Below, in pieces: positions 4,938 through 55,420 of a stretch of 64,000 bases of DNA. The notes below the pieces were generated by a model. The model saw nothing but the letters and a program-made list of their open reading frames with translations. It was not told where the DNA came from and did not search any database. The stretch is from Pomacea canaliculata (Eukaryota > Mollusca > Gastropoda > Architaenioglossa > Ampullariidae). The position numbers and the translations under genes were made by a program. The first letter of the stretch is position 1; each line of letters starts with the position of its first letter. Where the stretch lies: contig NC_037598.1 in NCBI RefSeq assembly GCF_003073045.1, positions 168,501 to 232,500 of the forward strand. The letters are read 5' to 3'.

Positions 4938-9054
<4,117 letters not shown>

Positions 9055-12705: not shown

Positions 12706-14439
12706 CTAGTGAGAGGCAAGACACACACCAGCCATCACTAAATACCACAGGAAGAGGGAGATCCCAGGACGTTTTCTTTGGGAAAGACAAGAAGAGTGAC
12801 AAAACAGGAAAAAGGCAAACATACCGACCACCGGCTTGACTTGGTCTTGCTGAGTCGAAGTTCTGCTTAATGTCGTCATCGTTGTACTGCTGCTGACTGA
12901 AGTTGTGCTGTCCGTTACCGACTGTTCCGTTGTTGTTGTTGCACTGTTGTTGAGGACAGTTTCAGTGTCCATTACTTGCTGTGTTGTTGCTGTTGTTGTA
13001 CTGTTGCTGAATAAGGACAAGGCAGTCAGTGTGCTGTGTCTCTCTGTATCTGTCACAAGGGGCGATGTGGTGATGGCTACTGATTCCTTGGTTATTCGTG
13101 TCACTCCTTTGTTTGAACCGTTGGTCGCTAGAGAGGCCGAGGTGTTGGCTGTGATGGAGGACGTGGAAGGCATGATGGGAGGTGATGTAGGGCTGCCAAC
13201 TAGAACTTGTGTGGTTCTGTCTACGTCAGATTTTATTGTGTAAGTTATGGCACTTGTTGTGTTCCTGACCTCTAGAAGTGTTGTGGTGTTGGATGGTGTA
13301 GATACTGTGGTGATTCCTGGAGCTGTTGTGGCGTCTTTAGTAACCAGAGCGGTTATCGTGCTGTTTGCTGTAGTTTTGGTGATGATCTCACCCTGGGCTG
13401 TTGTATTGCTGGTTATTACGGAGGGTATTGTGGTGTTTGCTGTAGTTTTGGTGATGATCTCACCCTGGGCTGTGGTGTTCTTGGTTATTATGGATGGTAT
13501 TGTGGTATTTATTGTAGTTCCTGTGATGTTCGTTTGTAGTGCTACGGTGGTGCTCGCTAGGGTTGTGCTGGTTCTGGTGCTGGTGCTGATATTGGTAGAT
13601 ACATAAGCTATGGTGCTTGTTTTTGCTGTTGTTGATCTCGTATCTACAGATATCGTGGTGTTTGATACATTAGTTTGTGTGGTATTTGCTTGTGTCTTAG
13701 TAATCCATATTCTTATTATTCCTGTTGTATTATCACGTGGTTTGGTGGATGTGGAAAGCGATGTGACTACCCGTGTCGTAGGTGACCGTGTGGTTGTTAT
13801 GGGCGACGTGTCTTCAGTTACTGGAAACGAAGTGTCTTCAGGCGCAAGAGATGACATGTCTGCTGTGACATCTCCAGACATTGGAGTCTCGTCAGTAACT
13901 GAATTTACTGTACAAATAACATTGGGTTAAAATATTAGATGCATTAGAAGCATTTTCCCATGAAAAGTATAAATTTTTTTTAGAAAACAACAGACTTCAC
14001 GTGTTTAAAATACAACCTCATGAATACAACATTTTTATACATTAAAAAGATGAAGTTATTTCCATTAACCAATACACACATAAATAAATCGATTTTGTTG
14101 ATTTTAAGATAAGAAGCGCTGCGACAAAAAAAAAAAATTGAAACTAAAAACAGAAATTGAAACAAACCTCTTAGAAAGGAAGTATCTTTAAATAGATGAG
14201 AAAATTTACGAAATAATAATTTATAAAAATTTATAAGATTGGCGTATAAATTGTTTTATATTAGTAAATAAAATGTTTGGTTTTTTTTATAAATAGTTCA
14301 CACACATTAGCTCCTTTGTATCACCTTTGAGAAAATTTCTTGAGATTCTAATGTAAAGTTCGAATTCTTGTAATGTTAAAGTCTGACCTGGACTGATAAG
14401 TAGTAATCCAAGAAGATAAACTGCAAAAAGTGCTTTCAT
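12706..14439 (-). CDS. G1: secreted mucin-like Thr/Ser-rich glycoprotein, two exons
   Basis: Exon 1 (14439-14388) encodes the signal peptide MKALFAVYLLGLLLISP and stops in phase 1 at a GT. Exon 2 (13907-12706) continues in frame to a total of about 417 aa. The body is overwhelmingly Thr and Ser with many Asn-X-Thr sites (NTTQTNVSNTT, NITGTTINTT), as expected for a heavily O- and N-glycosylated mucin-like domain. Three 24-residue repeats lie at 13506-13291. The unspliced reading ends in a hydrophobic tail (GISLFLWYLVMAGVCLASH) that could be a GPI signal or membrane segment, as in G2-G4. A possible donor (g|gtatgt near 12823) and acceptor (cccaaag near 12772) would instead give a short tail without an anchor, so alternative forms are possible. 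No enzymatic domain is seen. The upstream TATA and ctagcaaca-like element match the family pattern. Specific function unknown. Confidence 0.75.
13291..13506 (-). repeat. Three 72-bp coding repeats in G1
   Basis: Two units are nearly identical (TTIPSIITKNTTAQGEIITK and TTIPSVITSNTTAQGEIITK, each followed by TTAN). The third is diverged (STITALVTKDATTAPGITTV). The period is 72 bp on the DNA: the + strand string gtttgctgtag recurs at 13363 and 13435. Unit length is a multiple of three, so repeat number can change without breaking the frame. Confidence 0.85.
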
Positions 14440-14534
14440 GTTTTACAGCATATTAGTTGAGGCTAAAGATGTGCTGAGATACTGACTGATCCACGGTCTG
14501 TGGGCCTCTAGCACAGTTCTGTTCAAGTCCTGGC

Positions 14535-14560
14535 TATTTATTATCGACTCCATAGCAACA
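14535..14560 (-). promoter_or_regulatory. G1 core promoter: TATA-like box plus tagcaaca motif
   Basis: On the + strand this reads ctatttattatcgactcc then atagcaaca, so the - strand has an ATAAATA-type box preceded by tgttgctat. It is about 100 bp upstream of the G1 ATG. The same order and spacing occur in front of G2, G3 and G4. Confidence 0.6.
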
Positions 14561-15073
14561 GGAATAATCAAACAAAACACAGTCACAACCCAGGTAAGTT
14601 ACTTGGGACAGGGCGGGACGAGATCACGTGACAGAACATTTTTACATCCTCCATACACACCTGAAGATTCCTTGTGCGAGTAACAATGGGTCTGAATTAC
14701 CTACTGTGTTTTGGATAATTGTCTACCCAAAATTTACCCATTCCTGAAAGGTACAACATATTCTACAACATTATCAGACACAATAATATAACAACACATC
14801 AACTCACCAGCCCGTGAGGTACTCTACTCACAACCACTTCCAGGAGAAGCAGGAATTGTCTATCTTGAAAATAAGCAAAATATCACAAGCGTAGTCTGTA
14901 TTATGATAGATAAATATCATTAGTTATTAACTAAATGGTATGGACCAGAGAGTATTGTACTTCATATAGACGCTGCAAAATAATCACAAAAACGACAACA
15001 AAAACAACAAAATTAAAATGCGATATTCAAAACAACTACTAGTACAATATCAATTTTCGACTCTCTCTGTCTC

Positions 15074-15116
<43 letters not shown>

Positions 15117-17509
15117 AAGAAATGATGCATGCTCGCGCGCACACACACAAAGGCACAAATTAAAAAGTTCGAAAGTACATAAACAGTAAAAGCAAGAATG
15201 TCTAAAAACATCTTTACCTGTAGCAGGAATAAGAAGATCACTACACTATGTACTATGAACATGACAGACCTCCAGAACACAAGAGCAATAATTACTAACA
15301 ACAGTAACTAACAACCATGATATTACAGAGCAGCCTTCATGCCCCTCCAACAGCTCAGCCATCTCCTCACCCTCCTCGCCCTTGTCATCGACACTAGCTA
15401 GTCTCGCTTTTATTTCTGTTTGTTATTTCTTTGTTAAGTTCTGATATATGTGGCCTTAGTCTACTGTTCTCAGGTTAGTTCCGGTGCTAATCATCATATG
15501 CATCGTTGACTATGTTCAAGTGGCCACTACTAATGAAGGGGACTTAATTCAAATGGTCATTACCATGAAGGGACACAACCACTGTACAAAATGAAAGCAC
15601 GGCAGTTAGAAGACTGTTTCAGTACGTTCTCCTTGCATGACCAGACTGTGTTTACTACAAAATAAAAGGTATAAAAATGGATATAAGAGGCATTTTCTCA
15701 GATTTTTTTCCATCTTGTGACAGCCACAACAGTCTGAAGTCATGGAGTTGTATGAACACCACTGTGTAACAAAGCTTTCGGCTCTTGTACTGAGAGTGGT
15801 CTTGTGTACTCTCTAAACTTCAAAGGTATTTGTGATTGTAAACTTTTTACAAACTAACCTCCAGATGTCGACTTTTCAAGGCATATACTTGGTCTTTGGA
15901 GGAGGGCTAGTTCAAGTTTGAGAAGTATTAATTTGTAAAAACATTTTCGAGCCCAGTCATCAGGTAAACATGTTAAGCAACATGTTGGTGGAATGTGATC
16001 TTTGGGTTCAAGAAAAAATAATTGGCATGGCACACGGGTAGTGCACGGGTATGTATGACTGTGTAACAATCTGTTTTTGGCATTTTACATGTGTATCTTC
16101 GTGTGAGTGATTCACGTATGTTTGTGTGCGTGCATGTTCGTATGTGTGTGAATGTGAATTTACGTGTGTGTGTTTTGGTGTGTGTGGATATTTCTGCTGC
16201 TAATATATACTGTATGTAAAACACAATATTTATACATAGTGGATAGTATGTGAGCATGATATGGGGAACAGTTAATGAGAAGCCAAGGAAAAGGTCAGAA
16301 TTTTCTAACACAAACAGACATGTCTTTGGTTTTGTGAGTGGAGGGAGGAGGGTAGGAAGGAATATCGGTCACCAGGCTCCCAATAATTGCAATCTGCATT
16401 CATTGTCAAGAAGACAGAATAATGCCGAAATAAGATTTCATTTTATATCGGGAATATGATAGTGAAATACTTGCACGGATTTACTTGACAAACAGCTGGT
16501 GCGGGAATACAGAGACAATCACAGTTGATAGGTTGAGACTGAAATTTAAAATACCTAATACTAAATGTAAGCACAAGTAAAGCAGTCAGTTCAGTCTTCA
16601 GCTCACGAGAAGCAGATGACTGTACTAAAGTATGCTGACGTTGGCGGCGATGGCGGTGGTGTCCGTGGGAGGCGATGAAGCAGGTAACTGAGATGTTAGC
16701 GCGGTGACGCCTGAGGTCAGAGGTGAGCACGTTAACCTCCTCAATCCTCTTGGGACTGATCATACACTCGAGTGAGCCCACCTGTCGACTGCGCTACCTG
16801 ATCCCTTTGATGATTGTGGAGGGGATCGGCACGGCTCTTACAATGACGGCTGCTCCTCCCCCACCGAGATAAGTGGCAGTGTGAGGAACAAAGATGTTTG
16901 TGTGTCTGTGTGTGTGTGTAAAGCACGTTTAAACGTGTCGGTGGTTAGGTCTCTGACGTAGGAGAAAGCCATTTCTATGTTTTTTTCTGAACATCAGTTA
17001 AAACGGCATCGACCTTATTTTTTTTTGTTTTTTAGTGTCAAACGTCTGTGTGCGCGCGCGTGTTTGGGTGTGCCTGCATATGCGTGTGTGTGTATGTGTG
17101 TGAGAGAGAGGGGTGTGTGTATGAGGAGTGTGGGTGCAAGTGTGTATGTACTTGTATGCATGCTCGCAAGAGAGAGAGAGAAAGAGAGAGAACAACAGAA
17201 AGTATGGGTGCATGAGTCCGATGATACGTGGATTCGAAACCGCCCGTTGCCGTGTGTATTTATTCCTGCCCAAAAAATCTGGGTCTTATATTTGTAGCTG
17301 ATTCATTCAATACTTTTACAGGTGGATGAGGATAAAAGATTAAGGTATAAAGAAATAGGTTAATAGCGATGGGGACTAACAAGTGCATTTCTCATGTGAC
17401 ACTCGAGTACAATCTGCAAAATATTTCATGCCTCATATAATGTTTTGTAAGGCATGAACACCATTCAGTGGAGGATTAACCAAACATTTTAACTCGCCCA
17501 TCTAATGCA
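14561..17509. other. Intergenic region with simple repeats
   Basis: No gene supported. It contains a CT then CA dinucleotide run (15061-15118) and a GT/GA-rich low-complexity stretch (about 17043-17190) that generates open frames on both strands. A tRNA-like box A (tagcgcagtcgacaggtggg on the - strand, about 16770-16800) hints at a decayed SINE but is not enough to call. Confidence 0.45.
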
Positions 17510-18005
17510 AGCTGAACAAATTTTTAAACCTCACGAGCTTGCAAGGAGTTTATTTTCACACGAAGCACCCTGTCGAGCAGGATTCTTGCTGAATGGCACA
17601 ACAGCTTTTGTTACTGTGACTGAGCCGCTGGAGCTCGGGACCACAGCAAACAGTGCACCACGACTCTCCCTCCCATCAATCACACTCTGAATACCTTCAC
17701 CTCTTGAAAGGTACGAATACCTGGCATAGGAGTGTCGGCATTACCACACCTTTTCCTTCATGACAGTAATAGGGAAGACGACCAGAGAAAGGATGCCACT
17801 AGGACTAGCATCAGTCGTGAGAGTACACTTGGAATTAGTAGACACACGTGACATACACTTACCTGGAGTTTTCTTAGAGGTATGGACCACTTGAAAATCG
17901 TCTAGGTGTCCAGCCTGGCCCATCCTCCAGGAGTACCAAAGATGTGGTAAGCACGATGTTGTATTGCCAAAGCAGATGGGCTGTCCTTTGATATCTTTAA
18001 GTCGT
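17510..18005 (-). pseudogene. Immunoglobulin-like domain relic
   Basis: Reading the - strand from about 18005, one frame gives KDIKGQPICFGNTTSC, LWYSWRMG and DDFQVVHTSKKTPGKC. It continues with KCTLTTDASPSGILSLVVFP and KEKVW, then a stop. One base shift further it continues NADTPMPGIRTFQEVKVFRV. The order Cys, Trp, a D/G turn and an aromatic position near the end, followed by a beta-strand-like tail, resembles an Ig-like domain. A following open frame of about 52 codons (17690-17510) includes SSSGSVTVTKAVVPF. There is no start codon, the domain's second conserved Cys is not at its expected place, and a stop and frameshift interrupt it. I read it as a decayed gene fragment or missed exons of a diverged one. 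No paralogue is present in this window. Confidence 0.35.
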
Positions 18006-18204
18006 GAGTATACTGAGGTCAGAGGCTAAGATAGGTCGTGAGCATAGAGAGGTCAGAGACTAAGATAGGTCGTGAGCATAGAGAGGTCAGAAACTAAGAT
18101 AGGTCGTGAGCATAGAGAGGTCAGAGGCTAAGATAGGTCGTGAGCATAGAGAGGTCAGAGGCTAAGATAGGTCGTGAGTATAGAGAGGTCAGAGACAAAG
18201 ATGG
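18001..18204. repeat. 34-bp minisatellite, six units
   Basis: Six head-to-tail copies starting at 18001, 18035, 18069, 18103, 18137 and 18171. Each begins gtcgtgag and contains gaggtcag and aagatag, with only scattered substitutions. There are no unique spacers, so it is a tandem repeat and not a CRISPR. It abuts the Ig-like relic. Confidence 0.95.
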
Positions 18205-19138
18205 GATCTTCTAAAGTGTTTCGTTCCTCATTTGACTCTCTTTAGTTGTCTCTGATAATCTGATAATTTTTAAGGGTAGTTTTTATGATTGAAATTCACA
18301 TCTCGTGTTTTCATAAGTTGAATGGAGTGCACTGCACTGGTCTAGGTTGGTCCACAAATCAGAGAGATACCTTTTGTTGTCTCTTGGTGCCAAACGATGA
18401 GCGGTACAATGACTTGAAAACAATCTTTGATCATAGACAAAAATAAGATAAAGGCGAAGTGGTAAACAGGGCAGCGATGATGACAGTTTCTGAAAACGAT
18501 GATAATAAAGATAAACGAATAAAACTGAAAACTTGAATGTGTTTTCTTTCCTCCGGATATCATACAGACTTCATAAAAATCAAGATACCTGTGATGTAGT
18601 AATAGTTGCATACTTGTGTGCATACTTGTGTGCAGATATGTGTAGGTACTAGAACGAATGATGCAGAAATGTCCTCTGTGTGCATCAATATTTTTGGTAT
18701 GACACCTTGTTGGTGTTATGTTGTGTAATTATAAAGATCAAAGAATTCTCACCAAATCCGTGCGATTCGGCTATTATTCTTTTCTGAGGACTACAATGGT
18801 GAAATAAAAACACGCTCAAGTCATGTTCTTTTTATTCAAGTTGTTAGTAGAGGTCAACACACTTTAATTGCTCGAACAAAGAGGAGCTGAACTGTACTGT
18901 CTAGGCCCTCGGCCTGTCACAATTAAGAAGAGCAGTCGATTGACAGCAAAGAAAGAGTAAGAAACAAATCATTTAACAACCATTCAACTTATTTATTTCA
19001 ACAAAATTAGACTAGTATATGTAAAACTCCAATGGACAATTACAGCTAAGATATCATCTGGAAGGCAGAAGTACAGAGCTGAAAAAAGAGAAAGTAATAA
19101 TATTGAGAACAGACAGGTCCTCAAAAGACATGGAAAAC
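18205..19138. other. Spacer between the minisatellite and G2
   Basis: AT-rich sequence without a supported gene or repeat. Confidence 0.4.
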
Positions 19139-19139
19139 A

Positions 19140-19225
19140 AAACTCTTTTTCTCTAAGGTATCGCAATCCCTAAGACTATGTCTTAGTTCATATTACACTT
19201 GTGTGTTTAGATACCAGAGAGAAAG
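19140..19225 (-). promoter_or_regulatory. Conserved block with hairpin in the probable G2 3' UTR
   Basis: This lies about 410-500 bp downstream of the G2 stop. It contains ctaagactatgtcttag (19170-19186), a perfect 7-bp inverted repeat with a 3-nt loop. A related block with the same stem and a 7-nt loop (33891-33911) lies downstream of G3. Flanking words are also shared (caatccctaagac, gtcttagttcatatta). The UTR assignment is inferred from distance, and no poly(A) site was fixed. Confidence 0.5.
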
Positions 19226-19638
19226 AAAGAGACAGAATAACAGATTTGACAAATTAACAAAATTAAAAGCAAGAGAATTATCGTTTATGTCTTACATTTT
19301 TGTGATTAAATTTCTTCGCTCATTCTTGTGTGTATGCACACAATGATAAAGATTGGAATAGCTGCAATTAGTGCGTTTGTGTACGTGTATAATACGTTGA
19401 TACACATGTATATGGTGACTATTCTCAGCTATTTAAAGGGTTTCAAAAGTTACTATGTAAAAAAGATTGAATCCAGTCACAATACGATGACAGGCAGCAA
19501 TCACAATCTTTAGTCTGGCAATCACGTTTATTGTCGACCTGTACGAGAAATGCCGACTGAAAGTAGTCATTCATGTAGAGAAATGTTTGTCTGTGTTAAC
19601 AGAACGAACTTTTCTCTCAGCCCACAGGAAGGTATACT

Positions 19639-22497
19639 TTAGAAGCCAGCAAGTAGAAGAGCTGTCAACATGAAGATGCTGATGGGAAGCCAGGTGATCC
19701 TTACTTCTTCACCCATGTTATATCCTGAAAAGAAAGACGATAGAAAGAAAATCCAAACTTTTGTATAAATTTGACGACATTTTAAGTAAATAAAAACACA
19801 AACAATGAATCTTCTTCCTGATTCCGGGACACTGATAATAGCGCTAGTGATTTTTATTTTTAAAGTATTTAACGGCAGATATTGTCGGCTAGAAGAGTAA
19901 ATACAAACATTAAAATTAAATCATATTATCTTACCTGTTGTACTGTTGCTGGAGTACTCCGTTGTAGTTGAATTCCCTGATGCTTCAGTTGCACTCCCGG
20001 CTACTGAACTGCCTGTTCCTTGGGGGTCACTCCCGGATGCTGAGCTGCCTGATGCTGCACTTACACCCACGGTTACTGAACTGCTTGTTCTTTGGGGGTC
20101 ATTCCCGGATGCTGAGCTGCTTGATGCTGCATTTACACCCACGGTTACTGAACTGCTTGATCCTTGAGCTGAAGTCCCGGCTTCTGAATTGACTGGTGCT
20201 CCAGTTGTAGTTGTTCTAGTTGAAGCCATAGTTGTAGTAGTAGTAGTAGTTTCAGTACTTGTAGAAGTTGTTGATTCAGATTCGCTCACCGATGAGTCAG
20301 TTGAAGAAGTGTCCGCCGTAGTTCTCCACTGACCTATAGTTGGTGTACGTATATGTCCAAAGTTATTGTAGATACTTCCTGTCCCCTTTACCCTATTCCC
20401 ACCCTGTTACTGGCCTGTCTGGAGAGCTACTCTCTAGCCTGCATACTAAGAAAAATAAAACTACCATGGCATTAATACATCAAACATATATCATCTAATC
20501 AATATCTTGCATCCTGTCGGCCATTTCTATTCTCTCTTCTCGCTGGCTGCCCCCAGTACCTCATACACGAGTCAAGTCTCGTTCTTTAACCTCGCAAATC
20601 TCGCACCACTGCGCACTTCTTACTGGCGGCTTGTTAAAGCAGGAACTGAATATCAAATCTCAACTCTCTGCTGGCTTCTCCCTCTCTAGTTTTCTTATCT
20701 CTTACTTGTCCACACTCTTGCTTAAAACCTTCTAAACTCTACAGAAAAATAAGGCATCCAGATTAAATTGTCTCTGGGCTGTCGCAATGTTACTCATATT
20801 TTTCAAGTGTATATCCCTAATTTTCTGACAGAATATACACCCACTCAACACCTTCACTCTTTCTTTTATCACTCCTTTCAGAGCATGCCCAAAATACAGG
20901 GAGATTCAATCAAGAGGATCGGATTATTTTGTCATGGTTCTCGTTAGGACAAAAATATCTAAGCGAAACACCGAACAGTGTGCTCACCATATCAGTTTGC
21001 ATATCCTACTTAAAAAGTCGAGATACCCGACATCCGAGCGATGAGGTGGGTGGTTCTAAAGTGTAAGCTCCATTTGGTAAATAAAGCAAGGCGTCTTAGT
21101 GTGTCTGTCATAAACCTTACATCATGACACATAATGAAATCGATTACGCATACATCAAGGAATGCACGGTATTTGTTGATTTGTTTGTTTATTTGTTTAG
21201 ATTGTGGAATTAGGATAATAATTATAGAAGAATATTCGGAGCATTTTCGAGTGAATCTCCTTGTTGAAGCGTGTAAGACTTTTGATGAGAGGATGAGTCT
21301 ATGCTGCCCCGCAAAGCTGTGGAATTCCCACTGTATACTCATTGTAATTTTTAAAATGCTATGAAGACATACCTATTCAAAAAATGATTTTGCTAGTTCT
21401 TTTCAAGACTTTGTTTCATACTTGCTGCCATGTGGTAACTTAAAACAAACGACGGCGGACCTGGAAGCGTTTGTGCAAACGTTGAGACCAAGGTCCCGGG
21501 GCGACGACTGAGTATGGTGGCGCCACTTGCCGCGAAATGCGATCAGATAATGTGTCGTATCCACTACCGTTCTAACACAAAGGCGCCGGTTCAGTATCCG
21601 GGTGGCGCAGTGTTTTCTTTGCTTAGACGACCTAGCTGACTCCACAGAGGGTTGACGAAAGTAAGACAACGAGTGATGGAAATAGGCATCCCACCTAACC
21701 TCAAAAAAGCTAGTTCTAGAAAAGTCCAGTTTGCAACACCGCACTCCTCAAACAACCTCAAAAGGTCAATTTCATTTCCATATGTAATGATACTAAGGTT
21801 GTAGATACTAAGGTTTTAGAGTCTGGGTTTATTTCCAACTTTCGGATACCCGTTTGCATATTATTTGCACCTTTTTTCTTGCTACTATAATTTTTGTCAA
21901 ACAGCTGATACACCTCGCATTGTAGTTAACAATATTTTCAAACCCACAGCTACACGTCGCTTTTCCTGTATTATTATATTTCTATTTCTCTTTTGCTTTG
22001 TTCTAACAAGAGAAGAATAATCTCTACAAAACAAACAAAAAACGTTTAGAAACAAGTAAACTCAAAACAATAAAATGAGATTCAAACTTAGTTTCATGAT
22101 TACACTACCTTAAGCTTCATTTAAACAGCAAACTTACTAAATGTCACCATTAAATCATTTTAAATGAAGAAGGTCATAACATCGTTGAAAAAAGAACTTG
22201 ACTGTCTGTCACCAGATATTTGTCAAGTAGATATTTTTTAACAAAAATATTATATAAAACTGTCGCTAATCGAAAACGTCTGGAAGAAAAAAAAAGGATA
22301 GAAGAAGAGCAGGAAAGAATAAAAAAGTGTCGACAATGGTACAAACAACATGTAACAAATTATTATATCTTGTGTCATTATGTGTAATAGAGGGTCACAA
22401 AACTGGGAATTAAGAAATGGATGTTTTCCAGTTATGAAGATGATGTCTTACCCTGGAGTATCAGCAGAAGTGCAAGAACACTGGCTACTCGACTCAT
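19639..22497 (-). CDS. G2: Ser/Thr-rich mucin-like protein with hydrophobic C-terminal anchor
   Basis: Exons on the - strand: 22497-22452 (signal peptide MSRVASVLALLLILQ), 20333-19935, and 19724-19639. All junctions are phase 1 and the frame is continuous, about 176 aa. Exon 2 begins GQWRTTADTSSTDS and is rich in Ser, Thr, Gly and Ala. It holds imperfect internal repeats (SSSVTVGVNAASSSSASG, SSSVTVGVSAASGSSASG). Exon 3 encodes ITWLPISIFMLTALLLAGF and a stop, a short hydrophobic tail typical of a GPI signal or a terminal membrane anchor. Exon 2 start and exon 3 align with G3 (GHWTAATST; SWLPGSIFMLTVLPLGLF), and exon 3 also aligns with G4. No enzymatic domain is seen. The product is predicted to be a surface-anchored glycoprotein. 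Intron 1 is 2.1 kb and holds a SINE-like repeat. Confidence 0.75.
21590..21770 (+). mobile_element. tRNA-derived SINE-like fragment in G2 intron 1
   Basis: Contains a tRNA-head-like ccgggtggcgcagtg followed by a segment from gactccacaga to ataggcatccca. That segment resembles 35891-35955 (gactccacaag ... ataggcaccca). Two diverged copies of a common 3' domain in one window support a short interspersed element. The boundaries are uncertain. Confidence 0.4.
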
Positions 22498-22540
22498 TCT
22501 GGCTTCCATAGATGACAGATCTTCACTTGACATTGATAGC

Positions 22541-22566
22541 ATTTTATAGAGCAGTCCCTAGCAACA
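22541..22566 (-). promoter_or_regulatory. G2 core promoter: TATA box plus cctagcaaca motif
   Basis: The + strand reads attttatag ... cctagcaaca, so on the - strand a tgttgctagg motif is followed about 8 bp later by a ctataaaat TATA box, roughly 45 bp upstream of the ATG. It matches the arrangement before G1, G3 and G4. Confidence 0.65.
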
Positions 22567-22569
22567 GCC

Positions 22570-23386
22570 ATGGGTGGGGAATAAACAGTCGTGACATAGC
22601 CTGACAACGAAAAGCTTCCCTGTGAATATATTAACCCCTTGCATTCGATCTTTCCTTGGAATTCGATTGCTTCATTTGGTGCCACTAGTTTCAACCAGTA
22701 GTTTAGTTCCAGTATTGGTAATATTAACCAATTTATGTTCTTGTTACTGGAATGACTACTTTTTAGACAGCATGTAGGAATAAACATGGGCTTAGGTGAG
22801 TGGCAACACTAGGACACCTTGATGTGCCCTTGAGATGAAGGGCGCCAAGTGTTCATCCAAGTGTTCAACTTGTCCAGGTGACAGTGAACTTAATTTACAT
22901 GAACAAAACAGGTGCAGGAATAACCACTAAAACAACAAAGCGCCATCTATCTGAATGCCATAGAGGATCATTTAAAAGGTAGTCACAATGTAGACGATAG
23001 GAATAAGGAAGAGAGGAAGAAAACAGCGCCCAGACTTTTTAGGTCTCACAACAGAGGGTAAAATGGTTACACATTTACAACAAATATTAGAGTTGTATCA
23101 CAGCCAGTAAAGATCATAAAACTTGACATAATCCAACAGCCTTTCTCTCCAGCATACCACACACACACACACACACATGTGCGCACAATTCCCCGATTCT
23201 ATCCTTTAAATGCACACACACAGTACATACAAGGAATGATACTACCTGCACTGATAAAAAAGAAGAAAGCAGAACAAGAAACATAACCTACAAACATTAA
23301 ATAAACAAAGATAAATATACAGTAAATCGGGAAATCAGTGGATCCTTTCTACAGATACACAAACTTAAACAGTGTAGACGGATGCA
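22570..23386. other. Intergenic spacer
   Basis: No gene supported. A short CA run occurs at 23157-23177. Confidence 0.4.
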
Positions 23387-23604
23387 TTAGAAAATAGAAG
23401 ACATAGAATGTATGCGACCTTCTGAAACATTTCCCGTGTTATTTAAGGGGATGGTCTCAGTTTGATCAACTGTAGCTCTTGACACTTCAACCTGAGAAAA
23501 TCCTTTGCTGTACTGAACGACCACTTGACTGAATGCAAGGTTTTCTCTTGTACAATCCTTTCGAGGACATCTGTATACCACGGCGATTGGCTTGCTTGTT
23601 CGAG
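23387..23604 (-). CDS. Orphan terminal exon, unknown protein
   Basis: Behind a pyrimidine-rich acceptor (tttttctctaacatgttcaag, exon from 23604) lies an open phase-1 frame of 72 codons ending at a TAA (23389-23387). It contains KPIAVVYRCPRKDCTREN, SQVVVQYSKGFSQVEVSRAT and VDQTETIPLNNTGNVSEG. The composition is balanced and not low-complexity. It could be the cytoplasmic tail exon of a membrane protein, but no upstream exon could be assigned in the 3-4 kb on the 5' side. It could also be a chance open frame. The family is not recognised. Confidence 0.3.
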
Positions 23605-26600
23605 CTTGAACATGTTAGAGAAAAACCGCGAAGCGGGACAAATAATTTTTTTTTAAAAAATGGTCATAAAGCATTTCTTTTACCTCTCCCTTTCTATCCA
23701 AGGTGTCTGACTCATACCACCTCACTGTAATATAATGACTTCTTCGAATCCTTTAGCGGAAGTCGTTTCTCTCTGAATACCTGTCGGTTTTTCTAGGGAG
23801 GCGGGTGGGTGAGCAACGGTCCAAGTGTTTATGGAGGGAGCAACATATGAATGATAAAATGAAAAGCAAGCAGAAGTTCGTTTTCCAGCCCACGCCTCTA
23901 GTTGTCCTTTCTGACACCAAATATTTCTTATGTGTAAGTTTATCTATACATAGTTTTTAGTAAGCATTTTTCACAAATAAGATTTGAAAACTTTTTAAAT
24001 ATTAAGTTCCTTGAATTCTTAAGTTACTTTTTGGAATAAAATAAATAAAGGGCTCAAAACCTAAATAACTTGTCTGCTAAACAAAATATAATAAATAAAA
24101 ATGTTACCAATATATTTATATTTTATCAGAAGAGAGAAGGAGCTATCAAGCCAGCAACAAACATAAGGCGACAATAAGTAATTCAGAACTAAGGGTAACA
24201 AAATAGCTCGAGTGTCTGTTAGATAACCAGCTTATTAAAATTTAATTTGTTATAAATATAACAGGTCTCACTAATCTAAAATAATTAAAGTAGGGCTTAA
24301 CAGATTATACTTAGCTAAATATTAAGACATTCTTTCATGCGCGTGTGGTGAGCATGATCTCTAAGTTAAAGATGAATTAAAAAAAAAGAAAAACGCAGAC
24401 AGGTCTTATCTAAATTTAAACTGGCATTTAACACTACTTCCAGCTTCATCCTACCCACAGATTTTTGTGTGCACTGAACTGTACATATATGTAACAACGC
24501 TAAATTTAGAATCGTTTAAACAAAGAGGACAGGATGTTATCCCATGTTATAGACATCTCATGGAAAACAATAACAGCTATAATCTGCTAACCAAGCCTAA
24601 CGATAAATTAATTAAAGTACTTTTTCGAAAACATCATAAATAATATCCGTCAACCTTATTTATTCATAGCCAAAGCCGTGATTAAGCATATATCAGAGTA
24701 ATTAAGGACGGACGGGGCATGTCCTGGACACCGAGAACAGAAGAACACAACAGGAAGAGGGCAACACAAGCAGTGAACACCTCAAACAGTGTGAAGTCCC
24801 CTTTTTTGGTTGAAGCACTTCTCCCTTCCAAACACGAAAACAACAACAACAATTTTAGTTTGTATTTGCAAGGAGACCAGCCAGGGGAAGAGAGCAGCGT
24901 GAGAAGTTCTGGCTTGTCTAAGAGAGGGAAGGAAGGAGAGAAAGAGACTAATCACACGCAGTTCTGTACTGAAACGGTTGAACGTTTGATTTGGAGAAAA
25001 ATAAAAAACAATTACAATTCGAGATACAGGAAATGAAAGATGAGTCTGTGATTGCCTAATATTCTTTGAGTCCTGTGGGATTGCTAGCTTACACTCTGCA
25101 AGGTTCCTAAGAGACGAATATATTGCAAATACTGATTGTTATCTGAACACCGCTAGTCTGTAGCTGAAAGGCTAATCTCTAGCAGTTAGCTAACCAGCTA
25201 TTAACGTGTACATGGTAAAGCTAAAAAAATACACAACAAAAACATGATACTAAAACAAAGGGCGACGAAAGTCAGATGTCAAAAAGGACTCGAGCTTGTA
25301 AGACATTTCACTCTAGGATACATTAGTCGACGAAAAAAACGATGTAGAGTAGCTATTCCTCCCATCTGGAGAGACACACCAGAGGTCAGCAGGTCTATAA
25401 ATAATGCTGTTAGTATGAGTACTGACCACATTCATCTGCGTTTTAAACATGCTAGGTAAGACTATATTGTACTCTTTAACATTGAGACAGAGAGATTGTG
25501 AAGCCCAGCGGTTCTCCTTGTTCAGGGCACGGTAATTCAAAAGTTGAGTCCTACTCTTATGCTTTTGCCTTGATAATAAATAAACACTCAAGTCTAGGTG
25601 TGTCTAGTTCCAGTATAGGCACGCATCTTTTTTACCGAATAGAAGTGTAAGTCTAGAAAAAAGTATGAGTGTAGGTGTGTATGTGTGTGTGTCTGTCAGA
25701 GAGAAAGAGTTTTAGCGATTTTTGTTCTGTCCCCAAGGGAGACTGTCAATACTGAATATAAGAAGCTAAAAATGTAGGAGCTGGCAATGTTATGTGAGCA
25801 AACACAGTTGACAGTTTTGTCATGAAGAAAAAAACAAGTTGCTGTTAACATTGCTTTTGTGAGATTGGATGAAGAGCTTCAGGGTGTTATACCCGTATTT
25901 GCGAAACATTTAAAAGCAGTTTCAAGTGGGGTGGCTGTATGCGGGGCGTGCGCGGACATTAATGCCCTCTTCAGTGGTTAAAAAAGTTGCTGTTGTGGGG
26001 TGGCAGTATACTACTAATGTATGCCATGTATGATTCTTGTACCCGCAGTTCTGTATGCCAGAGTTATTTTACATCTTAAACGGGTTGTGTGCTTTGTTTT
26101 ATGTTTCCCTTTATTTGTTTTTCTAGATGCAATCATGAAAAGAAAGTAACTATTGCTAGCTTAAATTTCGTTATCTATTCGTTTTACTTTTTGTGACCTT
26201 GTTCCCTTCTTCTAGGCCGCATTAGGGGAGATAATGTGTGGCTTACAAGTCTTACAGCAGCAGTTATCTATTGCTCGTCTTTCGGCCTTCAAGTTCTCAT
26301 ATAACATTAAATTTTAAAAAATAATATGCTACCTTTAGAATACTGAATTAAATATTTCATAGTTATAGGAAATGAGTAATGGGCGAAAATGTCATACAGG
26401 ACAAAGTGAACCGGATACAAAATCGATTGCAAAATTCCGCTTACAGAGCCAGCCAGCCAGCCAGCCAGCCGGACAGACAGAGCTAAGTAAAAAAGGTGTG
26501 AAAGCAAATGTAGACATGTAATGCGTAGAACAAAATGTTATCACATCTTTTTTATCAGTTGATACACTTAGTTGCATTAACCAGATACAAACAGGTAGCT

Positions 26601-34509: not shown

Positions 34510-36781
34510 TTAGAAGAGACCAAGTGGAAGAACAGTCAACATGAAGATGCTGCCTGGCAGCCAGGACATCGCTACATATGTAGCCGTGCTGTTCATCGCT
34601 GGAAACACACCAGAGAACACAGATTAAGGGTGTTGAAAGAATAAACGACCGACACCCAACACATACGCACACACAAAATAAATAAACAAATAAAAAGCTT
34701 TTCAAATTGTGATCGCACTGCTGCCTAGGGATTTATATGCCAACTTCTCCTTAAGAAGACTTAAATATAGTTAATATTAAAACGCATAAATAAGAGAAAA
34801 TCGACAAATATTTGTATGAATGAACATTTTTACTTCAATGGTCGCATTTTTTACAACATGTTATGTTGTCATGTACCTGTTGCGGTAGTAGTTACACTTC
34901 CATTGCCTGCATTTCCATTCCCTGGTGACGTGGTTGTAGGAGCTGCAGTTGAATGCGCTGATGTTGATGCGTCAGTTGAAGCTGAAGTTGAAGTTGCTGC
35001 AGTCCAATGACCTACACATATTTTATCGACTGTTAAATTTTAAACACTAACAGAACAAACTGTCAATCATAACTAATAACTGTGATATACATTCTTTTAG
35101 GTGAGATAAGTACTTGTAGATTGGTCATCAGACTGACGAGACACTTGTTGTGACCTACAAACATGAGTCTGCTGCCGAGAGTTCTTGCACCTGCCATGCT
35201 GCTTACAGACTTCCGCACATGACACTTTCTGTCCAGACAGAGATTGCACGTGAAGGTACAGTCTGTATGTCATGCTGTTCACACAACTGATATCTACCTG
35301 CTTAATGTGATTAATGGTGTCTTTACTACACTGGATATCGGTGATAACTCTCTCCTTACCATGCATTTGTCTGCGACTTTTGACACAAATAATCACACTT
35401 TGAACGAATAGCAGGGCTGAGTCTTGTGAGCCGTGTGACGAGATGTGAGGAGAGTGAATGACATGTGTACGCAAAGTGCGAGTAATGTACGTAACATGTG
35501 AAAATTGTGAACGTGTGAGAGTTTAAGTGACGTGTGAATAATGCACTAATATGTGAACTTTGTAGTAACGTCGCGTGCTGGACCCGGCTGTATGAAGGAT
35601 GGGAACCAGTGTTTGGTATACTACAGCAATATCAACAACAGCACATCGCCATGATCACCAGAGACCGACACATTAGACTAATGCCACCTAGTGTCGCCGT
35701 AAACGACTGCAACAGCAACCTGAGACAAACCACGTGACAAACGTGTGACAGCAAGCAGGGCTGAGACAAGAGTACAAGGACTTCATCACACAAGGCTGAG
35801 GGGTTAGAGCACTGAGATCGAATTCCGAAGCACGGACACGATATCCGTCTGGTAGAGCACACGTCAACAGTCGGCTCAGGTGTTGGTCACGGAAGCCTGA
35901 CTCCACAAGGGAGTGGTGAGGGTAAAGCAAAGAGGGAGTGGGGATAGGCACCCAGCACGAGCTAGCACCGAAAAGATTGAGTTTACCCACCTTTTGTTTT
36001 GAAAAAAATGTTACAAAAAGTTAGGGCATGACCTTTACCCTCTTAACCTCAAAACACACCAATGTAGCCACGATCACACACTTTATAATAAACACTTGTC
36101 ATCGTTCGATAATCCTGATTACAAAATCCACCTGCGGTCGATAAAAATACAATAAAGTCCTTACAGTGATTATTTCTCCATGTTATATATCATAGTAAAA
36201 TCATACACCTAGACTTTATTATTTATAAGAACCATTACTCTAGTCTAAATAATGTTAGGCTCTCCACTTTTCGAGGGATTTTGTTTGCATAAAATTCACA
36301 CCCTCCTCCGATAAACATTGTGGAACAGCTTATAAAGTGATAACTTAGGTGAATAATATTTTTAACTGAAAAACTCATGCTGTATTCACATACTCCTCAC
36401 CAGTAAAACTTTAGCCTCTCTGTTTACCTCGAATGAGTGGACATCATCTCCATAAAAATTACCACAAATAAACCCAAAGAGAAAAATATTTACAGCACGT
36501 AAGCGCAAAACAGAAACATTCGATTAAATCCTAGTTCCTATGCTTCTTTACTAGATTACAGCAGTTCACACCCAACCACCTTAAAGTCAAACAAATAATA
36601 ACATCTATTGAAATGCTTCAAAGCCTTTTCTTTTTAATAAAACTGACAATATAGAACTATTTAAAAAAATAAAATTAGCACTGATGAAAATAGCAATGCT
36701 GAATTTTGTAAGTTATCAGTGCGTCTTACCATGCAGCATGAGCAGAAGAGCAAGGAAACTGTAGATAGCTAATGTCTTCAT
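34510..36781 (-). CDS. G3: small mucin-like protein with hydrophobic C-terminal anchor
   Basis: Exons on the - strand: 36781-36730 (signal MKTLAIYSFLALLLMLH), 35011-34877, and 34598-34510. All joints are phase 1, giving about 91 aa. Exon 2 encodes GHWTAATSTSASTDASTSAH and a Gly/Asn/Thr stretch (NGNAGNGSVTTTAT). Exon 3 encodes MSWLPGSIFMLTVLPLGLF before the stop, nearly the same as the G2 tail. The predicted product is a very short Ser/Thr-rich peptide held at the surface by a GPI anchor or tail anchor. The donor of exon 2 is gtacat, weaker than usual. A possible decayed Cys-rich exon (CAEVCKQHGRC, about 35215-35160) lies in intron 1 but does not fit phase 1. Confidence 0.65.
35750..35990 (+). 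mobile_element. tRNA-derived SINE-like element
   Basis: Contains a box A-like ggttagagcactga followed by a box B-like gatcgaattcc. After these comes a body from gactccacaag to ataggcacccag, which resembles 21650-21705. It lies in intron 1 of G3 in the + orientation. The ends are not fixed. Confidence 0.45.
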
Positions 36782-36831
36782 TGCTGCTTGATAAGATACT
36801 AACGGGTGCCCACCTCAAGGCAGCAACGATA

Positions 36832-36859
36832 GCCTTTTATTGACTCCCCCCTAGCAACA
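36832..36859 (-). promoter_or_regulatory. G3 core promoter: TATA-like box plus ctagcaaca motif
   Basis: The + strand reads gccttttattgactcccccc then ctagcaaca. On the - strand tgttgctag precedes a caataaaagg box, about 55 bp upstream of the ATG. Confidence 0.6.
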
Positions 36860-37651
36860 AGGTTACACAACAAACATGGGACTCACTTCTTGACAACAGT
36901 TGTGATTGGCATTAACACCGCCTACCAACGCGTCCATTTGGTCTTGAATGAAACCAAATGCTTGAGTCAGTTCTTTCATAATCCTATATCTCTGTTATTT
37001 ATCAAAAGTATTTTGTTAGTGATTGGTGTCTTGTTTCATATAATATAGAGATTTTTTTAGCTATATTTCTGAAAGTATTTCGTTTTCTTACAATTTCTAC
37101 CATGGTGACCGTATATAGGGGTAATTCAATAAATAAATAAAGACTGTCTGATAGAGCGAGATCGTTTCAATGTATCAGCTGGCACTGAGCTCACTAGAAC
37201 TACAGAAAAGCCGAGTTGCACAAGAAACAACTACGCGAAAAATGTTTACAAAGTACAAAAACAAAGGGGACAGACTAAAAAGGCGAAGAGGAAAGCTACT
37301 AATAAATAACTGCCAGGGTTGAGGTTCCAAGGTGTCACAAAATGAAGCGATATCAACAAGACATACTAGATACTGTTGCCAAATAGGATAAAGACATTGT
37401 TCTTGTTTAAATGAAAGATCTATTTTTAGGAAAGGAGACGGAATAAAATTAAACTAAAACTGAAAAATAATAAATATTCAACACAGCTGGTCAAATTAAT
37501 CATTAAATCACTAAAAATGGAAGTAACAATTAATCTGTGTCTCCTGCCCCGCATCACACACCAGTGTACCAAAGCGATCTGTGTGTGTGTGTCTGTTACT
37601 GAAGGCAAAAAGCTTAAAAATTGAGAAGGTGAGCATTCACTGAGTACAAAT

Positions 37652-41021: not shown

Positions 41022-41169
41022 TCTAACAGTTTCTCCCACCTCAGACTAGACCTCAGTCTGTGTTGTGTGCTTGTTTCCCTCGTTTTCGAAGCATTTTTGA
41101 TAAGTTGGGTTCGCGTTTTTTTTGCTTTTTGTACATTTACTAAACATTATCCCATTTATTTTTGTAACC

Positions 41170-41541
41170 ATGGGTCCGAAAAAGAAGATGATGTCTATTG
41201 AATTAAAGCGCGAAATCGTAGAAAAACATGAGCAAGGTGTGCGAGTAATTGACTTGGCGAGGATGTACGGGTGTAGCACATCAATGATATGTTCTGAGCT
41301 TAAACAGGAGTTGATAAAGGGTACAACGCCAGCTAGGGGCGTTACAATAATTTCTAAGCTCCGGACTTCTCTCCATGAAAAGATGGAGAAACTATTGACT
41401 GTGTGGGTGACAGAGAAGCAGCTTCAAGGAGGAACCTTAACACAAAGCATCATGTGTGAGAAGGCACGAGCGATTTACGGTGATTTGCTGAAGCAGATCC
41501 CACACACTTCCACAAACGAAGAATTTAATATGTTTTTATAG
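41170..41541 (+). CDS. Tigger transposase DNA-binding region only, 123 aa, intact frame
   Basis: An ATG start in good context (accatgg) opens a frame whose N-terminus (KKKMMSIELKREIVEKHEQG, then VRVIDLARMYGCSTSMI) is the psq-type helix-turn-helix of CENP-B/Tigger transposases. Residues about 70-115 (KLLTVWVTEKQLQGGTLTQS, then IMCEKARAIYGDL) match the second, CENPB-type HTH. The frame ends shortly after at a TAG, and AATAAA follows at about 41561. The DDE catalytic domain, normally a further 250 or so residues, is absent, so the product cannot transpose by itself. It could bind element ends and interfere with an autonomous relative, or it could be a remnant. Confidence 0.8.
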   Translation: MGPKKKMMSIELKREIVEKHEQGVRVIDLARMYGCSTSMICSELKQELIKGTTPARGVTIISKLRTSLHEKMEKLLTVWVTEKQLQGGTLTQSIMCEKARAIYGDLLKQIPHTSTNEEFNMFL

Positions 41542-41765: not shown

Positions 41766-44090
41766 CCTACCCCACTGTCCACTGTCTGCTATCTTTCATT
41801 TTTATTATTGGTCTGCAGAAAAGACGATCTATCTTGGTCGTGATGCTGCGCGTTTTAAGTTTCCATTATTATTAATAACAAAAGACAAACACAGAAGACA
41901 CAACAAGGAATCAAGGAACAGTGTCTAGCAAATGTTGGGCAATGAGCTTAATTTTCAGACGTAAGTAAATGAGAATAATATTGACAACACGTTTTATTTA
42001 AAAAAAGATAATAATATAGACCAATTTATTACACATTAGTTAAAAATATATGAGGTGTAAGATTTATAATATTAAGCAAAGAAAGAAACGAACCTTTAAA
42101 AACTAAAACTACAAGTGGCATTTATACTGCGATATGACTACAGTAAAGTTTTTAGTCTATAGGAAAAAAAATTGTGCAAAGAACAAAAATGTAGTGTTAT
42201 AAAGAAGTGATTTCAAATTAGATAACCTCCATTACCTTTAGTTTCTAAGAGAACACATTCTCCAAGACATGGTCCTGGATCATATAACATTTGAGTTTTT
42301 AGTTCTCAAAGAAGGAAATGATAAAGGAGATTAGGAAACAACAACAACATCCACGGCGTATGAAAAGGTCGCCGGTACATAAAGGTTTAATTAAAAGTTG
42401 TGTTTTACTGAGTGCAAGACCTATAAATACATCGTACAACATACAAATATTACTTCATAGATATCGTATTATAACACAGTGCATTGAGCTCCCAGTGTAG
42501 GAAAGACATAACTCCCAAAGCAACAGACCACAACTACTAAAACATATTCATATTTCTAAAGCGGTGTAGTAAATTAACTGTAAAAATGTATTTCACAACA
42601 AACAAATCTGGAATTAAAGTGCAAGTTTTCAAGTCCATTATCACATCTGCCTATTTTTCAAAGAGAAGTCAGTCCGCACAACACTGGATCAGTTTACGAT
42701 TCCATATCAGGCTCCCAGTAAATGTAAAGGACAGTGTGGAACAAAAAGTAACATCTATCACATTTTACAAAACATCAAGGCACATATGAAATAAAAAAAA
42801 TTATGAATCACCTAAAGTCTTTGATTTTAAAATAAATTTTAAAAAGTCTGGCATAGAGCTTACTAATGTTCTCTTCAGGATGACATAATATTTTTTAAAG
42901 CAACACACGAATTTTCAGCATAGGAACTTTTTCCGGAACATGTCTTTTGTGTCTGAGAGGTATCAACCTACTAATCTATCCCTAGGTAGACTTTACAGTT
43001 GTATGTTTCATGCTTTGAGAAAGAAGTAAAAAAAAAAAAAAAAAAAAAAACATCTACCAAGCATTAAAGTGTCAACTATATCTACACTCACAAAGTATAA
43101 ACAAACATAAGACAAAATTTATGTACTAATATTCCTGTTCGCATGCTTTGTTCTCTTTTTTCTTGTTGTTTTCGTTAATTTAATTTGTTGTTGTTGTTGT
43201 TGTAGTAGTATGACCGACCCTTGTTTCTTGTCGATAAAACGTTGATAATCAAGCTATTTATTACCCTTTAATAATTCTTTATTATGTTTCATTAAATCCA
43301 TTACCTGTACTTACTAAACTAAAACCAATGAAGCATAATTAGTGAATCTTTTCCCTGTATTCACTCAGATTTAACCCAATGGTTTCTAAGTGCGATATGA
43401 TAGTCTACATTACAAATAAATTATTAAGGATATCGTAGAGCACAGGTTTGAATATGAGGTCTAGAATCATTGGCGTCTTTTTACAAATAGAAGAAAGTAA
43501 TTCCTTCGTCGTGATGGAAGATAAATGGAAAGAGTGTTTACAATGTCAAGTAGCCCACTTGCTGACATACACCTGTAAGGATACAATAAAATAATCTAAA
43601 AAAAGTTTCAATAATAATGGTATTATTTATGTTTCTCCCATATCATATATCATATCCAGTAAGTGTTAACGTGTTGATAGTTGTATTTAAAAAATAATAA
43701 TGGCGACACACTTTGTGCAAACAATAGGTTAAACATCGTGCAAGAAAAAGTTTTATTTCCCTAGTCAGTAAAAGCATTTAAAAAGTTGATAATTCGTCAA
43801 ATACGAAATGAATGGTAATAAACTTACTGTTAATTTTACTAATGACGATAGTGTTAGTTTAAGTAATTCGGCACACGTGTGTGTGTGTGTGCGCGCCACA
43901 TTTTCCGACCAATTTTCCCGAACACACTATCTCTTTGACTCTCAAGCCTCGGACAACATAACATACTTACAGACCTACTAAAGTGAAGTTAGTAGAAATA
44001 CAGAAACAAACACACATACACACACACACACTTTATAAATCCAGATTAATCCCACTTCACTCACACACAAACACACATGTACCGTACAGG
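41766..44090. other. Intergenic region downstream of G4
   Basis: AT-rich, no supported gene. It contains poly-A at 43027-43051 and short GT/GC runs at 43876-43896. Confidence 0.4.
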
Positions 44091-55318
<11,228 letters not shown>

Positions 55319-55391
55319 CCTCGCTTAGTGTTGAGATGTGATAAGAAACCTACGATACCAAAATGTCTTGGTCTACACACCACCATCGGCT

Positions 55392-55420
55392 TCTTATAGA
55401 GGAGTCCTTAGCAGCAACAG
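55392..55420 (-). promoter_or_regulatory. G4 core promoter: TATA box plus ttagcagcaaca motif
   Basis: The + strand reads ttcttatag ... cttagcagcaacag. On the - strand a tgttgctgctaag element, which has an extra gca compared with G1-G3, precedes a ctataagaa box about 75 bp upstream of the ATG. Confidence 0.6.

What the first reader, a model, noticed from the sequence alone, without database searches (positions are those of the whole stretch)
12706..55420. Four-member minus-strand family of signal-peptide plus mucin plus anchor genes
G1-G4 share a short first exon (46-52 nt) that encodes only the signal peptide and ends in phase 1, a Ser/Thr-rich body, and a hydrophobic C-terminus. In G2-G4 the terminal exons clearly align (WLPISIFMLTALLL, WLPGSIFMLTVLPL, WIPNGLSLMTAFLL). 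Sizes range from about 91 to 498 aa. The pattern suggests tandem duplication followed by fast change of the extracellular part while ends and promoter stayed constant. It recalls polymorphic surface-glycoprotein clusters in snails (analogy only).
Basis: partly seen in the sequence, partly recalled or inferred. Interest (0 to 1): 0.75.

Follow-up and report, generated by a model that had tools for sequence, protein, structure and literature searches.

The report
Snail surface-protein genes sharing one promoter
Four neighbouring genes of the golden apple snail share one promoter-like DNA block and one kind of predicted signal-peptide exon but differ strongly in the middle, and they likely belong to a larger chromosome cluster of predicted cell-surface proteins whose outer parts would be exchanged while the ends stay fixed.

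Summary
Largely a true observation. The window is Pomacea canaliculata (golden apple snail). Four minus-strand genes have 46-52 nt signal exons ending in phase 1. These exons and a 31-bp promoter-like block (TGCTANGG, 7-bp spacer, WATAAR) are alike at DNA level: in each leave-one-out scan the left-out gene ranks directly behind its three training sites among ~127,900 positions. Tail exons of G2-G4 are related; G1's end is unresolved. Corrections: (1) G4 is not just a mucin. Its long "intron" holds eleven modelled exons, mostly Cys-rich (Pfam EB), with a three-module unit present twice. (2) The family is not four genes. The block with 8-bp spacing precedes five more genes on the same chromosome (C9, 60-697 kb), each with a phase-1 signal exon, then EB-like modules; the places of two were predicted by the block. 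(3) Membership in the Biomphalaria resistance clusters fails: those proteins have an internal membrane span, G2-G4 end in the hydrophobic stretch. Best reading: a likely co-regulated, modular cluster of surface or secreted glycoproteins, likely GPI-anchored, whose phase-1 introns would let bodies change in frame. Expression, anchoring and polymorphism are untested.

The parts
14531..14561 (-). G1 promoter-like block, 31 bp
   Evidence: leave-one-out weight matrix, rank 4 of 127,940 behind its 3 training sites; genome-wide pattern hit with 0 mismatches
14388..14439 (-). G1 signal exon MKALFAVYLLGLLLISP, phase 1
12825..13907 (-). G1 mucin exon, Ser/Thr-rich, 72-bp in-frame repeat
12031..12128 (-). 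G1 candidate terminal exon (unresolved; the alternative is read-through of the mucin exon to a stop at 12706)
   Evidence: no similarity support
22537..22567 (-). G2 promoter-like block
22452..22497 (-). G2 signal exon MSRVASVLALLLILQ, phase 1 (public model starts at an ATG further upstream)
19935..20333 (-). G2 mucin exon, 72-bp in-frame repeat (public model starts it further in)
19639..19724 (-). G2 terminal exon ...WLPISIFMLTALLLAGF*
   Evidence: joined in public model C0Q70_14497
36830..36860 (-). G3 promoter-like block
36730..36781 (-). G3 signal exon MKTLAIYSFLALLLMLH, phase 1
34877..35011 (-). G3 short Ser/Thr-rich exon
34510..34598 (-). G3 terminal exon ...WLPGSIFMLTVLPLGLF*
55387..55417 (-). 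G4 promoter-like block
55267..55318 (-). G4 signal exon MSPTTLYCLLGLVLIVP, phase 1
   Evidence: in P0001
53703..53795 (-). G4 Cys module exon 2
53300..53416 (-). G4 EB-type module exon 3
   Evidence: genome-wide EB hit C9:221801-221926
52833..52895 (-). G4 Cys module exon 4, truncated (its natural module end lies in another phase)
52254..52316 (-). G4 weak candidate exon 5 (absent from P0001)
51151..51270 (-). G4 module A, copy 1
50496..50582 (-). G4 module B, copy 1 (absent from P0001)
49010..49087 (-). G4 module C, copy 1 (absent from P0001)
48072..48191 (-). G4 module A, copy 2 (absent from P0001)
47417..47503 (-). G4 module B, copy 2
46740..46817 (-). G4 module C, copy 2
45610..45732 (-). 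G4 EB-type module, last
44740..45078 (-). G4 mucin exon, 21-bp in-frame repeat of about 13 copies (AVETSSH)
44091..44179 (-). G4 terminal exon ...WIPNGLSLMTAFLLVGL* (absent from P0001)

Best explanation
G1-G4 are likely one branch of a tandem cluster of genes for predicted secreted, likely GPI-anchored surface glycoproteins of the golden apple snail: one promoter-like block and one kind of signal exon are kept in all four, while the part between signal and tail is a mucin-like stretch in G1-G3 and Cys-rich EB modules plus a mucin-like stretch in G4. The modelled introns are in phase 1, so module or mucin exons could be lost, gained, swapped or multiplied without breaking the frame (shown: the phases of signal exons and tails, the duplication of three modules in G4, in-frame repeats in G1, G2 and G4; inferred: that this is how the bodies diverged). 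The same block, with one base pair more spacing, precedes five EB-module genes elsewhere in the first 0.7 Mb of the chromosome, so the whole set would likely be expressed in the same cells (inferred, no expression data) and would display a coat of stiff glycosylated stalks, some with Cys modules (inferred). Most likely use: a protective or recognition coat of an epithelium or of blood cells (speculative).
For: Promoter-like block: leave-one-out rank 4 of 127,940 positions, directly behind the three training sites, in 4 of 4 trials; whole 440-Mb genome, at most 1 mismatch: 5 hits, the four genes with 0 mismatches plus one 1-mismatch hit on C8, reversed control 1 (the pattern was built from these four, so the information lies in its absence elsewhere). 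Signal-exon DNA: leave-one-out rank 4 of 127,918 in 4 of 4 trials. Tails of G2-G4. Prediction test: the pattern with one more base of spacing gave 19 hits in the genome, control 4; of these 19 plus the stray hit (20 loci) 5 have a phase-1 hydrophobic signal exon whose ATG lies 96-112 bp from the start of the block, all five on C9 at 60-697 kb, and 0 of the other 15 do, three of which are also on C9. Three of the five (M1-M3) were known before the pattern was written; the places of two (C9:60549, C9:696537) were not, and both continue into EB-like exons. One of these two is the gene of P0004, a protein that one search had already returned without its place. G4 EB modules: Pfam EB E 1.7e-6, 28.4 bits, cut-off 24.3. 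G4 modules are homologous to the other EB genes: 0 of 100 Cys-fixed shuffles reach the observed score, for each of P0003, P0004 and M3. Model control: all 13 exons of my M1 model, signal and tail exon included, are in the public model 'protein draper-like' found later (P0003), which has three more modules.
Against: No transcript data. The inner exons were sought by requiring phase 1 at both ends, so 'all introns in phase 1' is partly built in; only signal exons and the public models test it independently. Public model P0001 ends G4 by read-through, lacks the tail exon and skips four of my module exons. P0004, the public model of the gene at C9:60549, does not begin with the signal exon that I predict there. 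G tails and EB-gene tails are not alike (hhalign probability 2.6%), and the EB-gene signal exons are not among the 12 best hits of the G signal-exon matrix, so the link between the two branches rests on the block, the architecture and the EB modules of G4. One site with no gene behind it (C9:135714) scores 23.5 with the two-part block matrix, above M2 at 22.9. No convincing EB remnants in the introns of G1-G3. G1's tail is unresolved. Phase-1 introns next to signal peptides are common in general (start of the abstract of PMC1626468 in the listing). The frame of G4 exons 4 and 5 is doubtful.
Confidence: 0.7

Rival explanations
1. Unrelated secreted genes that only look alike: short phase-1 signal exons and Ser/Thr-rich bodies are common, and any hydrophobic tail resembles another.
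For: An excess of phase-1 introns near signal-peptide cleavage sites is a general finding (start of the abstract of PMC1626468); bodies are not alignable except at the start of G2 and G3; the G1 tail does not match.
Against: Block and signal exon are alike at DNA level in all four genes and not elsewhere in the window or, for the block, almost nowhere else in the genome; the tails of G2-G4 stand far above all other terminal frames.
Confidence: 0.08
2. Secreted, unanchored mucins: the tail exons are rarely or never spliced in, and the proteins are shed into mucus or egg coat. This rival shares the cluster and promoter part of the best explanation and denies only the anchor.
For: P0001 ends G4 by read-through; the end of G1 is unclear; the hydrophobic cores are short (12-14 residues in G2-G4) and G4 has charged residues before its core.
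Against: P0002 uses the G2 tail exon; the tail sequence is conserved among three genes with in-phase splice sites; public models P0003 and P0004 end in hydrophobic stretches too.
Confidence: 0.2
3. A polymorphic single-pass transmembrane immune cluster of the type mapped in Biomphalaria (GRC, PTC2).
For: Snail, tandem cluster, predicted surface proteins with divergent outer parts.
Against: GRC proteins have the membrane span more than 50 residues from either end and outer domains rich in beta strand, most with fibronectin III (passages of PMC4361660); here 0-6 residues follow the hydrophobic core in all nine ends examined, read-through ends included, and Pfam shows no fibronectin domain in G1-G4 or P0001-P0004. 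Polymorphism not tested.
Confidence: 0.05
4. Decaying copies: G1-G3 are non-functional relics of an EB gene family that lost its modules.
For: Exon 4 of G4 has a module end out of phase; pN is about equal to pS in the G4 duplicate; no module remnants in the introns of G1-G3.
Against: Open frames over 1,083, 399 and 135 bp body exons, usable splice sites and a conserved block.
Confidence: 0.12

Closest known systems
EB-module (Pfam PF01683) proteins, public names 'prion-like-(Q/N-rich) domain-bearing protein 25' and 'protein draper-like' in Pomacea
   Same: G4 shares the EB modules; the two named genes lie on the same contig (C9:60 kb and 110 kb) and have the same type of block, modelled phase-1 exons and a hydrophobic C-terminus
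   Different: G1-G3 have no EB modules; G4 adds a mucin-like stretch and a tail of another sequence family
GRC and PTC2 single-pass transmembrane clusters of Biomphalaria glabrata
   Same: snail gene cluster of surface proteins with dissimilar outer parts
   Different: internal membrane span, fibronectin III in four of seven GRC proteins, proven haplotype diversity (passages of PMC4361660 and PMC11426442); the first two not found here, the third not tested
Draper/MEGF receptors (name used by the public annotation of the M1 gene)
   Same: repeated small Cys-rich extracellular modules
   Different: only EB found by Pfam in P0003; no signalling tail after a membrane span, as recalled for Draper
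GPI-anchored mucin-like surface proteins in general (recalled, no call)
   Same: signal peptide, Ser/Thr-rich repeats, C-terminal hydrophobic end with no residues after it in G2-G4
   Different: anchoring not shown; a shared promoter-like block over mixed EB and mucin bodies is not a feature I know from that group

Membership tests
EB-module family (PF01683) | EB module above the curated cut-off | tested here: met
   G4 28.4 bits against cut-off 24.3. G1, G2 and G3: no EB match, so this holds for G4 only
Membrane-tethered mucin | signal peptide plus Ser/Thr-rich tandem repeats | tested here: met
   signal peptide judged by hydrophobicity and exon structure, no dedicated predictor used; no tandem repeat reported in G3
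Membrane-tethered mucin | O-glycosylation | not testable with these tools
   needs biochemistry
GPI-anchored protein | C-terminal hydrophobic stretch preceded by a small-residue site, no cytoplasmic tail | tested here: inconclusive
   G2-G4: hydrophobic core runs to the last residue, small-residue candidates upstream; rule of thumb only, G1 unresolved, P0001 lacks the tail
GRC/PTC2 single-pass transmembrane cluster | membrane span more than 50 residues from both ends | tested here: not met
   definition in passages of PMC4361660; 0-6 residues after the hydrophobic core in nine ends
GRC/PTC2 single-pass transmembrane cluster | high allelic diversity | not testable with these tools
   one assembly only
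Draper/MEGF | EMI domain, EGF repeats, membrane span, signalling tail (recalled) | tested here: not met
   P0003 has EB only by Pfam and ends 5 residues after its hydrophobic core; tested on P0003; G1-G4 show no such domain either

The most novel reading that the evidence does not exclude
A promoter-tagged 'surface coat' superlocus: one compact core element (TGCTANGG, 7-8 bp, WATAAR) addresses a whole subset of a chromosome's surface genes to the same cells, and behind it wholly different extracellular bodies (Cys-module rods or mucin stalks) are exchanged as phase-1 cassettes between fixed signal and anchor exons: a body-swapping diversification system in a snail, possibly for parasite or microbe recognition.
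Probability: 0.22. Interest if true: 0.75.

Novelty: new variant of a known kind. Interest (0 to 1): 0.52.

Why it matters
In Biomphalaria, clusters of divergent surface proteins are where natural resistance variation has been mapped (PMC4361660, PMC11426442; passages). Here a promoter-like block is specific enough to find family members in a 440-Mb genome even where bodies share no sequence: it pointed to two EB genes whose places I did not know, one of them already annotated under another name. That gives a practical handle on fast-changing surface families that homology searches miss, and makes co-expression directly testable in an invasive crop-pest snail.

Tried and rejected
Rejected: GRC/PTC2 membership (topology). 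Rejected: EB remnants in G1-G3 introns (E up to 1, nothing convincing). Rejected: homology of G tails to EB-gene tails. Rejected: block hit C9:135714, no signal exon behind it. Rejected: diversifying selection in the G4 duplicate. A part failed in the script (non-coding comparison) and was redone; one search failed on a file name and was redone. The upstream pairwise alignments alone were weak: for G1-G2, G1-G3 and G3-G4 36 or more of 1000 random segments did as well on either side, and 5-14 for the other three pairs; the weight-matrix test is what carries the claim. An X-box (RFX) half-site reading of GTTGCTANGG is recalled only and was not tested. The first genome pattern was a loose rendering of the G2 tail that does not match the window's own tails; its one hit on C3 means nothing. 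The genome-wide search with the G3 tail found only itself, but its first look kept one candidate and missed even the G2 tail, so it says nothing on family size. In the 224-kb stretch around the window no further G-type signal exon or tail stood out. PDB search with the G4 modules: two matches at E 0.77 and 0.8, nothing usable. Protein searches: G4 gave 1 hit (its own public model) of 7,993 scored candidates, capped; the G2 tail 1 of 3; M1 2 of 6,179, both on C9: no relative outside this species at those thresholds, with limited sensitivity. Literature (open-licence library, listings only): no paper held the terms; some searches gave one paper each, by title on other subjects; of the 20 papers listed of 25 none is by title on these genes.
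Full report
WHERE IT IS. The window is part of the golden apple snail genome. A protein search with the G4 model returned C0Q70_14499 of Pomacea canaliculata, whose exons match the window nearly letter for letter, and the G2 tail returned C0Q70_14497. The assembly held for the window has 440,159,624 bases in 24 contigs, and the window is C9:168501-232500 of a 27.16-Mb contig.

THE OBSERVATION. All four signal exons exist, are 52, 46, 52 and 52 nt long and end in phase 1. Models made by phase and splice sites give G1 410 aa (end uncertain), G2 176 aa, G3 91 aa and G4 502 aa. G2 and G3 bodies start alike (GQW/GHW). G1, G2 and G4 bodies contain in-frame repeats with periods 72, 72 and 21 bp. Inner exons were sought by requiring phase 1 at both ends, so the uniform phase is partly built in; the signal exons were found without that condition, and the public models agree where they exist.

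IS IT MORE THAN CHANCE? A 31-bp block begins 70-122 bp upstream of each ATG. A weight matrix from any three genes puts the fourth directly behind its training sites among 127,940 positions, in 4 of 4 trials, with left-out scores of 25.5-31.7 against 11.1-17.1 for the best unrelated site. The same holds for a 42-bp stretch over the signal exon and its donor (4 of 4, left-out scores 17.7-35.2 against 8.7-10.9 for the best unrelated site among 127,918). In the whole genome the block pattern with at most one mismatch has five hits: the four genes without mismatch and one stray on C8 with one mismatch; the reversed control has one. The pattern was drawn from the four genes, so finding them is no test; finding almost nothing else is. 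Leave-one-out scores of the tails of G2, G3 and G4 are 49, 40 and 35, reached by 3 of 570 window frames, the tails themselves; with the own match included they score 53-58, the next of 673 minus-strand terminal frames 15.7, the G1 candidate 9.0 at rank 18.

G4 IS AN EB-MODULE GENE. Between its signal and mucin exons lie eleven modelled phase-1 exons, most of them small Cys-rich modules. Pfam gives EB at 28.4 bits, cut-off 24.3. A three-module stretch is duplicated at 95% identity (47068-48764 with 50160-51847; 46499-47069 with 48769-49340), with an 820-bp insertion in one copy. Two exons are doubtful: exon 4, whose natural module end is out of phase, and exon 5. The public model P0001 uses seven of the eleven, skips exon 5, modules B and C of copy 1 and A of copy 2, adds a short piece that my model lacks, and reads through the mucin exon to a stop.

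THE FAMILY IS LARGER. I fetched 160 kb of flanks (5,100 N in the 224-kb stretch) and scanned them. Three plus-strand blocks at C9:110448, 128866 and 139893 resemble the G blocks but have 8 instead of 7 bp between the two halves. A two-part matrix trained on G1-G4 alone scores them 27.8, 22.9 and 26.4; the best score in ten Markov-shuffled regions is 20.2, but one other site in the real region (C9:135714, no signal exon behind it) reaches 23.5. Each of the three is followed by a phase-1 signal exon and EB-like modules. A genome-wide pattern with that spacing gave 19 hits, reversed control 4. Of these 19 and the stray, 20 loci in all, five have a phase-1 hydrophobic signal exon whose ATG lies 96-112 bp from the start of the block: the three already known and two new places, C9:60549 and C9:696537; the other 15 have none, among them three elsewhere on C9. 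Both new ones continue into EB-like exons. The first is the gene of P0004, a protein that one search had returned before, without its place. Nine genes are thus found to carry the block, all in the first 0.7 Mb of C9. EB by Pfam is shown for G4, P0003 (M1) and P0004 (M0); M2, M3 and M4 are called EB-like on their Cys pattern, and M3 also on its similarity to G4. More EB-like exons lie nearby without a block that matched: plus strand 84.9-87.1 kb and 95.8-97.2 kb, minus strand 715.7 kb. Genome-wide, of 150 scored EB matches (590 candidates) 9 lie on C9 between 0.22 and 1.01 Mb; the main EB cluster is on C2 at 18.945-18.996 Mb. No C9 module at 60-146 kb is among those 150, so these counts are lower bounds.

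CONTROL OF THE GENE MODELS. I assembled the gene at C9:110550 from phase-1 rules, signal and terminal exon included. The public model 'protein draper-like' (P0003), found afterwards, contains all 13 exons I used and three further 27-aa modules. P0004, 'prion-like-(Q/N-rich) domain-bearing protein 25', corresponds to the gene at C9:60549, including its tail exon, but begins differently from my signal exon. G4 modules match P0003, P0004 and M3 above 100 of 100 Cys-fixed shuffles each.

HOW IT LIKELY WORKS. Shown: constant promoter-like block and signal exon in four genes, constant tail in three, duplication of modules and repeat growth in frame. Inferred: the block is a promoter and sets common expression; tails are GPI signals, since the hydrophobic core in G2-G4 runs to the last residue with small residues upstream; bodies can be gained or lost as cassettes because the introns share phase 1. 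Phase-1 introns beside signal peptides are common (start of the abstract of PMC1626468 in the listing), so this last point is permissive and not proof. Function as a protective or recognition coat is a guess.

WHAT DOES NOT FIT. The G tails are not related to EB-gene tails. The EB-gene signal exons are not among the 12 best hits of the G signal-exon matrix. There are no convincing EB remnants in G1-G3 introns. The duplicated modules show pN 0.049, pS 0.056 and non-coding 0.037, with no excess of amino-acid change (Fisher P 0.45). No relatives outside the species were returned, but these searches need shared five-residue words.

COMPARISON. The Biomphalaria GRC cluster consists of single-pass proteins with the span more than 50 residues from each end and a large outer domain, four of seven with fibronectin III (passages of PMC4361660), and PTC2 lies in a region rich in single-pass genes (passages of PMC11426442). 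G1-G4 do not meet the topology. 'Draper-like' is an annotation label; only EB was found in P0003.

VERDICT. A real gene cluster, on which my searches found no paper, with one unusual property: a compact promoter-like block that marks genes with unrelated bodies and is otherwise almost absent from the genome. New variant of a known kind.

Noticed in passing
window 1-9054 (+) and C9:148-168 kb: Tandem cys-loop ligand-gated ion channel genes between the two groups of surface genes: ligand-binding domain E 6e-13 and membrane region E 5e-8 on two window exons; terminal exons at window 383-883 and 8560-9054 (alike) and, alike by eye, at C9:151924 and C9:157741. No block hit lies among them in the top 14.
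   Followed up: partly
window 49341-50160: 820-bp element with terminal inverted repeats CAGTGGAACCTCGGTTA... in one copy of the G4 duplication, absent from the other; looks like a non-autonomous DNA transposon.
   Followed up: partly
window 41104-41538 (+): Open frame with a Tc5-type transposase DNA-binding domain at 21.5 bits, just under the cut-off of 22.2: likely a transposase relic.
   Followed up: no
L011:3551-3655 (C9:142051-142155): Short tandem stretch reading CSGYLTCGRYLTC within the M3 gene, likely a simple repeat and not a module.
   Followed up: no
C2:18945317-18995896: Large separate cluster of EB modules in long open frames, minus strand; no block hit lies there.
   Followed up: no
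promoters of the plus-strand genes at C9:60, 110, 129, 140 and 697 kb: Upstream of the block, four of five plus-strand genes share TGTCAACA (M0, M2, M3, M4), not seen in the stretches shown for G1-G4.
   Followed up: no
window 18001-18202 and 27943-28259/31215-31544: A 34-bp tandem repeat of about 6 copies and a dispersed repeat pair at 78% identity.
   Followed up: no
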